Shown here: positions 4,076-47,759 of the stretch, in pieces | Position numbering within the stretch: position 1 is the stretch's first letter | Layout of the letters: each line of letters begins with the position of its first letter | NCBI GenBank assembly: GCA_011390515.1 | Contig: JAABSJ010000018.1 | Span: forward strand, 1-47,759 | Source of the DNA: Oscillatoria sp. | Lineage (GTDB): Bacteria > Cyanobacteriota > Cyanobacteriia > Cyanobacteriales > Laspinemataceae | Direction of reading: 5' to 3' | DNA: 47,759 nt | The notes under the pieces: model-generated | The model's input: the letters and a program-made list of their open reading frames with translations, nothing else | Database searches by the model: none | What the model was told of the DNA's origin: nothing | Position numbers and translations under genes: made by a program

Positions 4076-4255
4076 GCTGAAAAAATGCAGCGATCGGAGC
4101 TCGTCGGCTCTTAATCACGGCTGCCAGAAGCCGGAGGTAATTGCGTGAGATTTTGGCTCCCCGAATCCTGTGGGTCTTGACTCCAACTGAATTCGGTGCG
4201 GTTGGGGAACCAGAGCGCTTGCTTCGCCCCAAACCCAGGCAGCATCAGGGATTCA

Positions 4256-4306
4256 CCTTAGCTTGATGCCTATGCCCCCACCCTTAAGAAGGGGGGCTTT
4301 TGTGCT
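4256..4306. repeat. Fragment of the C-run repeat seen at 745-790 and 904-964
   Basis: In reverse orientation this carries AAAGCCCCCCTTCTTAAGGG and, beside it, GCATCAAGCTAAGG; the latter also occurs at 761-774. Read forward it ends with a GGGGGGC TTTTG hairpin-like end that could act as a weak terminator. No gene is supported between 3873 and 4522 apart from the element at 3950. Confidence 0.5.
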
Positions 4307-4446
4307 CGGGACGGGGCGATCGCGCGTCACGCACTCTTGGCAGCTTAAACCCTTACTCTTAGACTGGAGGCAGAGCCACATCACGAGGAAAGCACTCCTC
4401 TCCCTCTAGGTAGAAATCCGGACCAAAAGTTATCCCGATTGGGGGG

Positions 4447-4475
4447 TTGACATCGGGTTTGAGCTTTGTTAGGTT
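4447..4475 (+). promoter_or_regulatory. Candidate sigma-70 promoter of the aroF leader
   Basis: A perfect -35 TTGACA (4447-4452) is followed after exactly 17 bp by TAGGTT (4470-4475), a weak -10. Predicted transcription would start near 4482, giving a leader of roughly 370 nt before aroF and about 40 nt before the first leader peptide. Confidence 0.55.
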
Positions 4476-4522
4476 TAGTCTATCTAGGACTAAATTCAAT
4501 TGATTCATCCATTCTCATCATC

Positions 4523-4579
4523 ATGTTAAACCGCAGCCCCTTCTTTTATTTTTGGTTTATCTTGGTTCACCGGCAGTGA
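4523..4579 (+). CDS. aroF leader peptide 1, 18 residues with run FFYFWF
   Basis: The ORF starts at ATG 4523 and stops at TGA 4577-4579. It begins MLNRSP, continues with six aromatic codons in a row (Phe Phe Tyr Phe Trp Phe, 4541-4558) and ends ILVHRQ. Such a run is the classic mark of a leader peptide whose translation senses aminoacyl-tRNA supply, as in E. coli pheA and trp leaders. Codons near the stop contain GGTTCACCGG (4564-4573), which can pair with CTGGTGAACC (4602-4611) and so exclude the terminator that follows. No Shine-Dalgarno is visible, which is common in cyanobacteria. Function is inferred from architecture; no relative is known to me. Confidence 0.75.
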   Translation: MLNRSPFFYFWFILVHRQ

Positions 4580-4601
4580 ATCCATTTTGACATGGAAACC
4601 C

Positions 4602-4636
4602 CTGGTGAACCGCAGAAGCAACGCTGCGGTTTTTTG
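4602..4636 (+). terminator. Attenuator 1: intrinsic terminator with competing antiterminator
   Basis: Terminator stem AACCGCAG (4608-4615) / CTGCGGTT (4624-4631), 8-nt loop, followed by TTTTTTG. Its 5' arm overlaps 4602-4611, which is complementary to 4564-4573 inside leader peptide 1 (10 bp, one G-U). The two structures cannot form together. The same AACCGCAG also occurs at 4529-4536 inside the leader ORF, an additional possible partner for the 3' arm. Confidence 0.8.
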
Positions 4637-4678
4637 TTGGTTTGAAACACTCTCTCGTAAAGGAAAAAGGCGATCGCT

Positions 4679-4744
4679 ATGACATCTCATCTCCCTAACT
4701 GGTTTTTTGGCTTCTACTTTTGGCTCCCAAAGAGTTCTGGGTAG
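4679..4744 (+). CDS. aroF leader peptide 2, 21 residues with run WFFGFYFW
   Basis: The ORF starts at ATG 4679, with AAAAGG 8 nt upstream (4665-4670) as ribosome site, and stops at TAG 4742-4744. It reads MTSHLPN, then WFFGFYFW (seven aromatic codons in eight, 4700-4723), then LPKSSG. It lies 100 bp after leader peptide 1 and has the same plan: aromatic codons in the middle, an antiterminator arm in the last codons (4731-4742), then an intrinsic terminator. All three aromatic amino acids are represented in both peptides, matching a regulator of the common aromatic pathway rather than of one branch. Confidence 0.82.
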   Translation: MTSHLPNWFFGFYFWLPKSSG

Positions 4745-4771
4745 GTTTTGTCATGATGCCAAATCGCCTCC

Positions 4772-4804
4772 GCCCGGAACTTTCAACAGGTTCCGGGCTT
4801 TTTT
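4772..4804 (+). terminator. Attenuator 2: intrinsic terminator with competing antiterminator
   Basis: Perfect 9-bp stem GCCCGGAAC (4772-4780) / GTTCCGGGC (4790-4798), 9-nt loop, then six T. Bases 4731-4742 (AGAGTTCTGGGT, end of leader 2) can pair with 4772-4783 (12 bp including three G-U), which removes the 5' arm of the terminator. Aligned with attenuator 1, both antiterminator arms lie just before the leader stop codon. Confidence 0.87.
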
Positions 4805-4854
4805 ATTGTCCATCTTGATTATTTGTAGATTATTTGTACATAAGGAGTAACCCA

Positions 4855-5712
4855 ATGAAAAATGCCAAACTCGTCAACAAATCTCATCCCACGCAACAAA
4901 CCGCCATTTCTATAGGCGATCGCACGACGATTGGGGGCCAAGACTTATTAATCATTGGCGGTCCCTGTGCCGTGGAGAGTCTCGAACAAATGGAAACCGT
5001 CGCCCGTCACCTCGCCCATGCACCCGTGCAACTATTACGCGGTGGCGTCTTCAAACCCCGCACCTCCCCCTACTCCTTTCAAGGCATGGGAGATGCGGGG
5101 TTAACTATTTTATCGACAGTGCGTCAGCGCTATGGGATTCCCGTGGTGACGGAGGTGATGTCAATTCATCAAATTGAAAGCATTGTCGCCCACGCGGATC
5201 TGTTACAAGTAGGCAGTCGGAATATGCAAAATTTCGACTTGCTCAAAGCATTAGGGGAAGCGGGTAAACCTGTGTTGTTGAAGCGGGGACTGGCAGCGAC
5301 TCTGGAAGAATTTGTGTTTGCTGCCGAATATATCCTGTCTCATGGGAATCCGGATGTGATTCTCTGTGAACGGGGGATCCGCAGTTTCGATTCGTTTACC
5401 AGGAATATTCTGGATTTGGGGGCAGTGGTGGCCCTGAAACAGATTACCCATTTGCCGGTGATGGTGGACCCGTCTCATGCCGCAGGGAAGCGAGAATTGG
5501 TGGCAGGATTAGCAAGGGCGGCAGTGGCAGCAGGGGCCGATGGATTGATTATTGAGTGTCATCCAGAACCGGAACAGTCGGTGTCTGATGCCAGACAGGC
5601 GCTGTCTCTTCCCGAAATGGTAGAATTGGTGCAGAGTTTAGGTCCCGTGGCAGCAGCAGTAGGGCGTCGGGTGCGTGGGGTGGAAGCTGTGCGGGAATTA
5701 TCAGCAGCTTAA
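4855..5712 (+). CDS. aroF: 3-deoxy-7-phosphoheptulonate (DAHP) synthase
   Basis: 285 residues. Catalyses phosphoenolpyruvate plus erythrose 4-phosphate to DAHP, the first step of the shikimate pathway to Phe, Tyr, Trp and plastoquinone/phylloquinone precursors; cytosolic, metal-dependent. Family signatures: GGPCAVES (about 35-42), FKPRTSPYSFQG (66-77), LLKRG, CERG, DPSHAAGKRELV and ECHPEPEQSVSD. Length and pattern fit the B. subtilis/KDO8P-like type (AroA I-beta), which lacks the E. coli AroF/G/H feedback site; no ACT or chorismate-mutase domain is fused. The chosen ATG has AAGGAG 7 nt upstream (4842-4847); an upstream TTG at 4834 has none. Expression appears to be set by the two attenuators upstream. 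Confidence 0.96.
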   Translation: MKNAKLVNKSHPTQQTAISIGDRTTIGGQDLLIIGGPCAVESLEQMETVARHLAHAPVQLLRGGVFKPRTSPYSFQGMGDAGLTILSTVRQRYGIPVVTEVMSIHQIESIVAHADLLQVGSRNMQNFDLLKALGEAGKPVLLKRGLAATLEEFVFAAEYILSHGNPDVILCERGIRSFDSFTRNILDLGAVVALKQITHLPVMVDPSHAAGKRELVAGLARAAVAAGADGLIIECHPEPEQSVSDARQALSLPEMVELVQSLGPVAAAVGRRVRGVEAVRELSAA

Positions 5713-5880: not shown

Positions 5881-6093
5881 GTGTCATGTGTCGTTTGTCA
5901 TGTGTCGTTTGTCATGTGTCGTTTGTCATGTGTCGTTTGTCATGTGTCGTTTGTCATTTGTCCTTTGTCATTTGTCCTTTGTCCAATGACTAATGACCAA
6001 TGACTAATGACCAATAACCAATAACCAATGACAAAGGACCAATGACCAATGACAAAGGACCAATAACCAATGACCAATGACCAATGACCAATT
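5881..6093. repeat. Heptamer repeat array that switches orientation
   Basis: About 100 bp of TTTGTCATGTGTCG-type units (14-bp period, 7-bp subperiod) turn near 5985 into about 105 bp of complementary-sense units such as TGACCAATGACTAA and GACAAAGGACC. This is the cyanobacterial short tandem repeat family related to STRR2 (TTGGTCA). The two halves can fold back on each other. The array ends 20 bp before the next gene. Confidence 0.9.
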
Positions 6094-10663: not shown

Positions 10664-10690
10664 ATGAAACCATAAGACTTTCCGACTTCA

Positions 10691-10786
10691 GTCGTTCTCT
10701 TCTCTTATGTTCGTAGTAACGACTTCAGTCGTTCTCTTCTCTTATGTTCGTAGTAACGACTTCAGTCGTTCTCTTCTCTTATGTTC
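10691..10786 (-). repeat. 37-bp tandem repeat family, three units
   Basis: Units read CGACTTCAGTCGTTCTCTT then CTCTTATGTTCGTAGTAA; the core AACGACTgaAGTCGTT is self-complementary. These units lie exactly between the two inverted REP-like copies. The same family occurs at 16603, 26645, 30431 and 47676. Confidence 0.85.
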
Positions 10787-10789
10787 GGT

Positions 10790-16581: not shown

Positions 16582-16602
16582 TTGTCGCTACTGGGGAGAA
16601 CG

Positions 16603-16698
16603 ACTGAATTCGTTACTACGAACATAGATAAGAGAACGACTGAATTCGTTACTACGAACATAGATAAGAGAATGACTGAATTCGTTACTACGAACATT
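16603..16698 (+). repeat. 37-bp tandem repeat family, three units
   Basis: Units GAACGACTGAATTCGTTACT then ACGAACATAGATAAGA. The core here is AACGACTgaATTCGTT. The array lies about 60 bp before recF. Confidence 0.85.
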
Positions 16699-16756
16699 AG
16701 ATTTTTTATTGCGATTAGGGTTTATTTTATTTTATTTTAATAAATTTTATTTAATT

Positions 16757-26618: not shown

Positions 26619-26644
26619 AATTGTGCGGGGTGGTTGGGGGGGGG

Positions 26645-26862
26645 AAGAGAACGACTGAAGTCGTTACTACGAACATAAAAGAAGAGAACGACTGAAGTCG
26701 TTACTACGAACATAAAAGAAGAGAACGACTGAAGTCGTTACTACGAACATAAGAGAAGATAACGACTGAAGTCGTTACTACGAACATAAGAGAAGAGAAC
26801 GACTGAAGTCGTTACTACGAACATGAAGAAGAGAACGACTGAAGTCGTTACTACGAACTTGG
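26645..26862 (+). repeat. 37-bp tandem repeat array, six units
   Basis: Unit AGAGAACGACTGAAGTCGTT plus ACTACGAACATAAAAGA, exact 37-bp period for most units. The self-complementary core is AACGACTgaAGTCGTT. There are no variable spacers, so this is not CRISPR. The last unit runs into the 3' end of the PanE-like gene. Confidence 0.95.
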
Positions 26863-47640: not shown

Positions 47641-47675
47641 AATATTTAGGGGGATCCAAAAATTAAAATCTCCGA

Positions 47676-47759
47676 ACCAAGAGGGAGAACGACTGAAGTC
47701 GTTACTACGAACTAAGAGGGAGAACGACTGAAGTCGTTACTACGAACTAAGAAAGAGAA
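47676..47759 (+). repeat. 37-bp repeat family at the window edge
   Basis: Two full units GGGAGAACGACTGAAGTCGT, TACTACGAACTAAGA and the beginning of a third; the unit is shorter here (about 34 bp). It continues past the window. Confidence 0.9.

What the first reader, a model, noticed from the sequence alone, without database searches (positions are those of the whole stretch)
4447..4855. Two aromatic-sensing leader-peptide attenuators in series before aroF
Seen: after a TTGACA promoter box, an 18-codon ORF with FFYFWF is followed by an intrinsic terminator, then a 21-codon ORF with WFFGFYFW is followed by a second one, then the DAHP synthase gene with its own AAGGAG site. Known: such runs sense charged tRNA in pheA and trp leaders of proteobacteria. 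Inferred: transcription must pass two separate ribosome-controlled gates, which would sharpen the response to shortage of any of Phe, Tyr and Trp. I know of no described tandem aromatic attenuator, nor of one at aroF in cyanobacteria.
Basis: partly seen in the sequence, partly recalled or inferred. Interest (0 to 1): 0.93.

Follow-up and report, generated by a model that had tools for sequence, protein, structure and literature searches.

The report
Two aromatic attenuators in series
In many filamentous cyanobacteria the gene for the first enzyme of aromatic amino acid synthesis is preceded by two short coding stretches packed with phenylalanine, tyrosine and tryptophan codons, each followed by its own terminator-like hairpin, and these likely act as two ribosome-controlled gates in series that would let the gene be read only when those amino acids run short.

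Summary
The window (nearest Laspinema, a cyanobacterium) has a promoter, an 18-codon ORF (FFYFWF), a terminator, a 21-codon ORF (WFFGFYFW), a second terminator, then aroF. Both gates precede aroF in 74 of 75 named relatives with enough upstream DNA. In a 386-genome phylum sample, 35 of the 38 genomes with this aroF type have both gates by model search, a 36th has an altered gate 2, and two keep one gate. Both ORFs evolve as coding sequence. In both, the last codons pair with the terminator's 5' arm, with compensatory changes. Folding with a modelled ribosome switches each gate before the terminator is complete, as in E. coli trp and phe. The enzyme lacks the regulatory domain of its paralogue, so attenuation may replace feedback inhibition. 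Tandem leader-peptide attenuators (mgtCBR) and a single aroF attenuator (C. glutamicum) are known. Ten literature searches showed no case in cyanobacteria; a 2016 paper states 'no reliable data' on attenuation there. No expression data were available: stalling and regulated termination are inferred. New variant of a known kind.

The parts
4447..4475 (+). promoter: -35 TTGACA (4447-4452), 17-nt spacer, weak -10 TAGGTT (4470-4475)
   Evidence: pattern in 74 of 74 loci against 26 of 1480 shuffles; not reported by the scan
4523..4579 (+). leader ORF1, MLNRSPFFYFWFILVHRQ; sensor codons FFYFWF at 4541-4558; no Shine-Dalgarno-like site
   Evidence: in-frame pN/pS 0.28; SD-like site in only 1 of 74 loci
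4564..4611 (+). gate-1 antiterminator: B 4564-4573 (last codons of ORF1) pairs with C 4602-4611; -21.0 kcal/mol
   Evidence: 28 rows: 99.1% of cells paired, 4 of 8 pairs with double changes, 0 of 500 shuffles as high on four of five measures; partner swap 0 of 500; energy
4607..4635 (+). gate-1 intrinsic terminator, stem 4607-4632 then T-run; shares GAACC with C
4659..4670 (+). purine-rich Shine-Dalgarno-like stretch before ORF2
   Evidence: SD-like site before ORF2 in 58 of 74 loci
4679..4744 (+). leader ORF2, MTSHLPNWFFGFYFWLPKSSG; sensor codons WFFGFYFW at 4700-4723
   Evidence: in-frame pN/pS 0.17
4733..4781 (+). gate-2 antiterminator: B' 4733-4741 (AGTTCTGGG, last codons of ORF2) pairs with C' 4773-4781; -20.9 kcal/mol for 4732-4782
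   Evidence: 26 rows: 95.7% of cells paired, double changes at 2 of 8 pairs; partner swap 0 of 500; energy
4678..4755 (+). possible extra helix: A' 4678-4684 (around the ORF2 start codon) with E' 4749-4755 (after the ORF2 stop)
   Evidence: suggestive only: 81.2% of cells paired, 4 of 7 pairs with double changes, but one slid control has 5; partner swap 12 of 500
4772..4804 (+). gate-2 intrinsic terminator, stem 4772-4798 then T-run
4855..5712 (+). aroF: short type I-beta DAHP synthase, 285 aa, no ferredoxin-like regulatory domain; AAGGAG at 4842-4847
   Evidence: TIGR01361 and NF006421; PF00793 and NeuB only, not PF18152; aligns from residue 67 of chain 1rzm_A

Best explanation
The aroF leader carries two complete sets of leader-peptide attenuator parts in series, which likely make transcription of this DAHP synthase gene depend on ribosomes stalling, one after the other, on two runs of Phe, Tyr and Trp codons. 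One transcript starts near 4480 (inferred from the promoter match). Gate 1: when charged aromatic tRNAs are plentiful, a ribosome would run to the ORF1 stop and cover B (4564-4573), so C would pair with the terminator's 3' arm and RNA polymerase would stop near 4636. When any of the three is short, the ribosome would stall on FFYFWF, B would stay free and pair with C, and the terminator would not form. Polymerase then transcribes ORF2, where the same decision would be repeated with B' (4733-4741), C' (4773-4781) and a terminator ending near 4804. Because both gates carry codons for the same amino acids, their readthrough probabilities would multiply: lower leak and a steeper response than one gate. 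The enzyme lacks the regulatory domain found in its paralogue, so this leader probably takes the place of allosteric feedback. Shown by sequence: the ORFs, their coding selection, both terminators, both alternative hairpins and their covariation, and conservation. Inferred: stalling, regulated termination, multiplication, loss of feedback inhibition.
For: Conservation: both gates in 74 of 75 aroF loci with enough upstream DNA; in 35 of 38 genomes with this aroF type among 386, plus an altered gate 2 in a 36th. Coding: in-frame pN/pS 0.28 and 0.17 over 38 rows, other frames 0.68-2.48; all three of F, Y and W in 71 of 74 ORF1 and 74 of 74 ORF2. Structure: covariation at both antiterminators and at terminator 1, weak at terminator 2; partner swap 0 of 500 for both antiterminators, while two control regions gave 356 and 174 of 500. 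Geometry: the last aromatic codon starts a median 8 nt (gate 1) or 13 nt (gate 2) before B, and the stop lies a median 5 or 0 nt after B. Folding before the terminator's 3' arm exists: C is paired upstream in 34 of 38 (stall at Tyr), 38 of 38 (stall at Trp) and 3 of 38 (at stop) for gate 1, and 37, 38 and 1 of 38 for gate 2; E. coli trp and phe behave alike. Codon choice: Phe TTT:TTC is 204:23 and 233:39 in the leaders against 96:283 in aroF.
Against: No transcript, 3'-end or ribosome data. With the whole terminator made and the ribosome stalled at Trp, equilibrium still favours the terminator base in 35 of 38 for gate 1 (mean 0.54; window 0.53) and 12 of 38 for gate 2 (window 0.96); stalled at Tyr the counts are 10 and 6. 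So antitermination needs co-transcriptional folding; E. coli trp shows the same (0.90). With no ribosome, gate 1 folds open (C paired upstream in 25 of 38), so an untranslated leader would leak. ORF1 lacks a Shine-Dalgarno-like site in 73 of 74. Some relatives have flawed gates: a shortened T-run at L076, an early ORF2 stop in L007, no usual ORF2 start in L079, an ORF2 that runs into the terminator in G174. The C. glutamicum aroF leader has Phe and Tyr codons but responds only to Phe (PMC11802643, passages), so sensing of all three is not guaranteed. I found no evidence that ribosome and polymerase are closely coupled in cyanobacteria (one search listed 4 papers; none opened).
Confidence: 0.86

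Rival explanations
1. Only one gate is regulatory; the other is a relic or a fixed-strength terminator that merely lowers expression.
For: Single-gate loci exist: L014 and G143 keep gate 2 only, G116 keeps gate 1 only. The window's gate 2 favours the terminator at equilibrium even with a stalled ribosome.
Against: Both ORFs keep aromatic codons under purifying selection and both antiterminators covary, which a relic would not. Both gates are kept in 74 of 75 loci and at least 35 of 38 genomes.
Confidence: 0.08
2. The leader peptides are arrest peptides that sense a small molecule (an aromatic amino acid or pathway intermediate) in the ribosome tunnel, as TnaC does (recalled), and not charged tRNA.
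For: The FYFW core is conserved: 56 of 74 ORF1 and 65 of 74 ORF2.
Against: Codons of all three end products are present, the exact residues vary between species, and synonymous codons are skewed towards TTT, which fits codon-based stalling.
Confidence: 0.04
3. The ORFs act mainly on translation (reinitiation or coupling into aroF), or the terminated leaders are trans-acting small RNAs or peptides.
For: A trans-acting leader peptide is reported in Sinorhizobium (PMC7298713, seen in a search listing only).
Against: ORF2 stop to aroF start is 74-352 nt with a terminator between, far for coupling; aroF has its own SD-like site in 72 of 74; both ORFs are built around mutually exclusive terminator/antiterminator pairs.
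Confidence: 0.02

Closest known systems
aroR-aroF attenuator of Corynebacterium glutamicum
   Same: leader ORF with Phe-Tyr-Phe codons before a DAHP synthase gene, attributed to ribosome stalling (PMC11802643 and PMC4046766, passages seen)
   Different: one leader ORF is described, no Trp codons are mentioned, Actinobacteria; said to respond to Phe but not to Tyr
mgtCBR leader of Salmonella (mgtM and mgtP tandem attenuators)
   Same: two leader ORFs in series, each with its own attenuator (PMC3641672, abstract and section 11 read)
   Different: the two gates sense different signals (ATP, proline) and do not resemble intrinsic terminators; here both gates carry codons for the same three amino acids and have intrinsic terminators
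E. coli trpL and pheL attenuators
   Same: leader peptide, terminator and antiterminator; same folding behaviour in my control
   Different: single gate, one amino acid each; the helices do not look alike (own reading of the sequences)
uORFC-13-1 motif before aroF in Acholeplasma
   Same: uORF with a U-run coding for Phe and a terminator stem before aroF (PMC8632094, section 26 read)
   Different: single motif, other phylum; 'at least one' Phe codon

Membership tests
classical ribosome-mediated (leader-peptide) transcription attenuator | short ORF rich in codons of the pathway's end products | tested here: met
   35% and 41% aromatic residues in ORF1 and ORF2 over 74 loci, against 3.7% in aroF
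classical ribosome-mediated (leader-peptide) transcription attenuator | the ORF evolves as a coding sequence | tested here: met
   pN/pS 0.28 and 0.17 in frame, 0.68-2.48 out of frame, 38 rows
classical ribosome-mediated (leader-peptide) transcription attenuator | intrinsic terminator between leader ORF and gene | tested here: met
classical ribosome-mediated (leader-peptide) transcription attenuator | antiterminator that excludes the terminator, free when the ribosome stalls and masked when it reaches the stop | tested here: met
   with E. coli trp and phe as controls; met for RNA made up to C, not at equilibrium in all
classical ribosome-mediated (leader-peptide) transcription attenuator | hairpin that protects against leak when the leader is not translated (the 1:2 helix of trp) | tested here: inconclusive
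   gate 1: without a ribosome C pairs upstream in 38 of 38 before the terminator's 3' arm is made, gate 2 in 34 of 38 (pseudoknots not modelled); gate 2's A':E' helix is only suggestive
classical ribosome-mediated (leader-peptide) transcription attenuator | ribosome stalling and readthrough that respond to charged tRNA in the cell | not testable with these tools
   needs expression data
T-box or amino acid riboswitch | match to an Rfam family | tested here: not met
   no match at the gathering score in the whole window; the highest-scoring of three sub-threshold matches in 4400-4900 has 25 bits against a gathering score of 59
tandem attenuators of the mgtCBR kind | two leader ORFs in series, each with its own attenuator | tested here: met
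tandem attenuators of the mgtCBR kind | the two gates sense different signals | tested here: not met
   all of F, Y and W in 71 of 74 ORF1 and 74 of 74 ORF2; judged from codons only

The most novel reading that the evidence does not exclude
Cyanobacteria use true ribosome-mediated attenuation, and here in a doubled form: two gates in series that sense all three aromatic amino acids and multiply, built as the replacement for allosteric feedback on a DAHP synthase that has no regulatory domain. The tandem would be ancestral to this enzyme subtype, and its existence would imply that cyanobacterial RNA polymerase and ribosomes are tightly coupled.
Probability: 0.6. Interest if true: 0.87.

Novelty: new variant of a known kind. 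Interest (0 to 1): 0.82.

Why it matters
A 2016 comparative paper states that there is no reliable data on attenuation in cyanobacteria (PMC4833913, section 7 read). This locus supplies strong sequence evidence in many named species and makes two open questions directly testable: whether cyanobacterial ribosomes follow RNA polymerase closely enough for attenuation, and what a second gate for the same signal buys. Theory for single attenuators ties sensitivity to the number and fraction of regulatory codons and cites 10-15% basal readthrough for trp (PMC1183508, passages seen); two independent gates in series would square such a leak (inference). It also offers a natural sensor part for aromatic amino acids in cyanobacterial engineering.

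Tried and rejected
Considered and rejected: (1) chance or low-complexity artefact: shuffles give no module. (2) T-box or riboswitch: no Rfam match at the gathering score. (3) Gate 2 as a recent copy of gate 1: neither model finds the other gate in the own genome at E up to 10. (4) A second promoter between the gates: one search reports none there, but it also missed the main promoter, so this is weak; only about 43 nt lie between the first T-run and ORF2. (5) A local hairpin at the ORF1 stop (TTCAC:GTGAA) as a further regulatory helix: partner swap shows no covariation (455 of 500). (6) The same leader on other genes: in 386 genomes gate 1 was found outside this aroF type once, before what looks like an aroF remnant (G030), and no gate-2 match below E 1e-4 was found outside it. 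These phylum searches scored only 8-9 candidates per genome with strict filters, so weak copies could be missed. The own genome's long paralogue has no ORF of 10-45 codons with 4 or more aromatics in 8 in the 500 nt upstream (14 ORFs). (7) 15 gate-2 places between E 4.7e-4 and 0.01 (12 of these genomes have no better one and lack gate 1 and the short aroF) were treated as noise; three were fetched (L149, L150, L151, the last from G039, which also has the real tandem) but not examined.

Results that came out weaker than hoped: the A':E' helix (partner swap 12 of 500; the slide by +3 has 5 pairs and 11 cells with double changes against 4 and 6); terminator 2 (one pair with a double change, 150 of 500 shuffles as high); a first codon-position count that was not in register, replaced by the frame-wise test. 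For all pair counts the tool warns that relatedness alone can beat its shuffles.

Rows dropped: one search kept the best 80 of 266 stretches that encode a relative. Five of the 80 have too little upstream DNA (L006, L008, L025, L042, L071). L076's gate 2 was missed by the script; its ORF and hairpin are there but its T-run is short. The 74-row sets are the window plus 73 relatives, without L014 and L076. Models R1 and R2 used 28 and 26 of the 38 representatives. The partner-swap tests used 36 of 38 (without L031 and L079). The tree left out G060 and G091, whose protein my script did not find.

Scripts that failed and were redone: (last part); one search asked for a range beyond the locus.
Full report
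WHAT IS THERE. A -35 box TTGACA (4447-4452) with a weak -10 (TAGGTT, 4470-4475) precedes ORF1 (4523-4579, MLNRSPFFYFWFILVHRQ), terminator 1 (stem 4607-4632, T-run to 4635), ORF2 (4679-4744, MTSHLPNWFFGFYFWLPKSSG), terminator 2 (stem 4772-4798, T-run to 4804) and aroF (4855-5712). The aroF protein is 97-98% identical over residues 1-285 to that of three Laspinema strains (L003-L005).

IT IS NOT CHANCE. The 500 nt before the window's aroF hold two aromatic-ORF-plus-terminator modules; 0 of 2000 dinucleotide shuffles hold one. Over 38 representatives 28 have two, 8 one and 2 none by this strict scan, against 0 of 760 shuffles. The in-frame pN/pS of the aromatic cores is 0.28 (ORF1) and 0.17 (ORF2), against 0.68-1.37 and 1.69-2.48 in the other frames (38 rows). 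A promoter match lies upstream of ORF1 in 74 of 74 loci, against 26 of 1480 shuffles.

HOW FAR IT IS CONSERVED. A scan of one genome per species found 266 stretches that encode a relative and kept the best 80, all from cyanobacteria by their titles. Five end too close to aroF to judge. Of the other 75, 74 have both gates and one (L014, a MAG) has only gate 2. A few are flawed: L076 has a short T-run at terminator 2, L007's ORF2 stops four codons early, L079's ORF2 has no start at the usual place. In 386 genomes of the phylum, 38 hold this short aroF type (E below 1e-100, identity 69% or more; the next, G343, is at 60% and has no gate match). The two models find both gates next to each other in 35 of the 38. 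G174 has a diverged gate 2: the hairpins are there, but ORF2 has no stop at the usual place and runs into the terminator. G116 keeps gate 1 only, G143 gate 2 only. Among the other 348 genomes gate 1 matches once, in G030, before what looks like a remnant of this aroF, and gate 2 has no match below E 1e-4. These searches scored 8-9 candidates per genome with strict filters. In a protein tree of 48 rows (42 with both gates, 3 with one, 3 long paralogues) the three single-gate rows need three separate changes, so loss from an ancestral tandem is the simplest reading; G116's place on a long branch is unsure.

HOW EACH GATE IS BUILT. In both gates the last codons of the leader ORF form the 5' arm (B or B') of an alternative hairpin whose 3' arm (C or C') overlaps the 5' arm of the terminator. 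Gate 1 (28 rows): 99.1% of cells paired, 4 of 8 pairs with changes on both sides, 0 of 500 shuffles as high on four of five measures. Gate 2 (26 rows): 95.7%, 2 of 8 pairs. Swapping partners between 36 species lowers pairing at both antiterminators (0 of 500 permutations reach the real value), while two control regions and the local ORF1-stop hairpin show no such effect. Terminator 1 has double changes at 2 pairs, terminator 2 at 1. The last aromatic codon begins a median 8 nt (gate 1) or 13 nt (gate 2) before B, and the stop codon follows B by a median 5 or 0 nt. So a ribosome on the aromatic codons, except the last one of gate 1, leaves B free, and a ribosome at the stop covers it.

FOLDING TEST. 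The ribosome was modelled by holding all bases from the ORF start to 12 nt past the start of the A-site codon unpaired. With RNA made only up to C, C is paired upstream in 34 of 38 (stall at Tyr) and 38 of 38 (stall at Trp) for gate 1, and in 37 and 38 of 38 for gate 2. With the ribosome at the stop the counts are 3 and 1 of 38. With the whole hairpin made, the terminator base forms in 38 of 38 at the stop for both gates. The E. coli trp and phe leaders, treated alike, give 0.75 when stalled and 0.00-0.01 at the stop. Against the model: with the whole hairpin made and the ribosome at Trp, equilibrium still favours the terminator base in 35 of 38 for gate 1 (mean 0.54) and in 12 of 38 for gate 2; in the window the values are 0.53 and 0.96 (E. 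coli trp 0.90). Stalled at Tyr the counts fall to 10 and 6. An earlier run, stalled at the last codon that leaves B free, gave the antiterminator in 37 of 38 for gate 1 and 24 of 38 for gate 2, the window's gate 2 not among them. So kinetics must matter. With no ribosome, gate 1 folds open.

A THIRD HELIX, UNCERTAIN. In gate 2 the start-codon region (4678-4684) can pair with a stretch after the stop (4749-4755). It has 4 of 7 pairs with double changes, but a slid control has 5, and the partner-swap test is weak (12 of 500). If real it would hide the start codon when no ribosome is loaded, or form a pseudoknot with the antiterminator.

WHAT THE GATES GUARD. The enzyme is a type I-beta DAHP synthase reduced to its catalytic core. 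It matches PF00793 but not the ferredoxin-like domain PF18152, and aligns from residue 67 of 1rzm_A, recalled as the Thermotoga maritima enzyme. The second DAHP synthase of the same genome (354 aa) has PF18152 at residues 1-68 and no aromatic leader ORF in the 500 nt upstream. I infer that the short enzyme escapes feedback inhibition and that the leader supplies the control. The short enzyme is also nearly free of Trp: 9 of 74 have any in the catalytic region, against 17 of 17 long paralogues. That would let it be made when Trp is scarce; whether it is an adaptation or an older trait was not tested. The leaders use the Phe codon TTT in 204 of 227 and 233 of 272 cases, whereas aroF uses it in 96 of 379 (test). 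I take this as a sign that decoding speed matters; the alternative is selection for unstructured U-rich RNA.

WHAT TWO GATES WOULD DO. Both ORFs carry all three aromatic residues in nearly every species (71 of 74 and 74 of 74). Any shortage would then open both gates, and the readthrough probabilities would multiply. A single gate leaking 10-15%, as cited for E. coli trp (PMC1183508, passages), would become 1-2% for two. This is arithmetic on an assumption of independence, not a result.

LITERATURE. Ten full-text searches listed no title or abstract that reports an aromatic leader-peptide attenuator in cyanobacteria or two such gates with the same signal. Four listings were cut (20 of 144, 20 of 32, 15 of 143, 12 of 54), and the library lacks most subscription papers. 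A 2016 paper says there is no reliable data on attenuation in cyanobacteria (PMC4833913, section 7). Known relatives: C. glutamicum aroR (PMC11802643, PMC4046766, passages), Salmonella mgtCBR tandem attenuators (PMC3641672, abstract and section 11), Acholeplasma uORFC-13-1 (PMC8632094, section 26). PMC1173090 (passages) lists database-predicted attenuators before tyrA operons, with two units in Streptococcus pneumoniae; their kind was not stated in what I saw. PMC7997468 (passages) held nothing relevant.

VERDICT. A real, conserved, doubly built aromatic attenuator: by anatomy it meets the core features of classical leader-peptide attenuation that sequence can test. Its tandem same-signal form, its phylum and its link to an enzyme without a regulatory domain make it a new variant of a known kind.

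Noticed in passing
   Followed up: partly
window 4855-5712 and 74-locus set: The short AroF is almost Trp-free (9 of 74 have any Trp in the catalytic region; long paralogues 17 of 17), as would suit an enzyme made during Trp shortage.
   Followed up: partly
window 4523-4579 and 4679-4744: Leader ORFs strongly prefer the Phe codon TTT, the opposite of aroF.
   Followed up: partly
window 4523: ORF1 has a Shine-Dalgarno-like site in only 1 of 74 loci, ORF2 in 58 and aroF in 72; how ORF1 recruits ribosomes is open.
   Followed up: no
window 4170-4305: A TTGACT box and a terminator-like hairpin (stem from 4281) lie upstream of the aroF promoter; part of the hairpin is shared with two Laspinema relatives. 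Possibly a small RNA.
   Followed up: no
window 10683-10787, 16596-16702, 26644-26858, 47673-47759: Dispersed arrays of a 35-37-bp repeat around CGACTTCAGTCGTT or its complement.
   Followed up: no
window 5882-6092: Tandem 14-bp and 7-bp repeats just downstream of aroF.
   Followed up: no
   Followed up: partly
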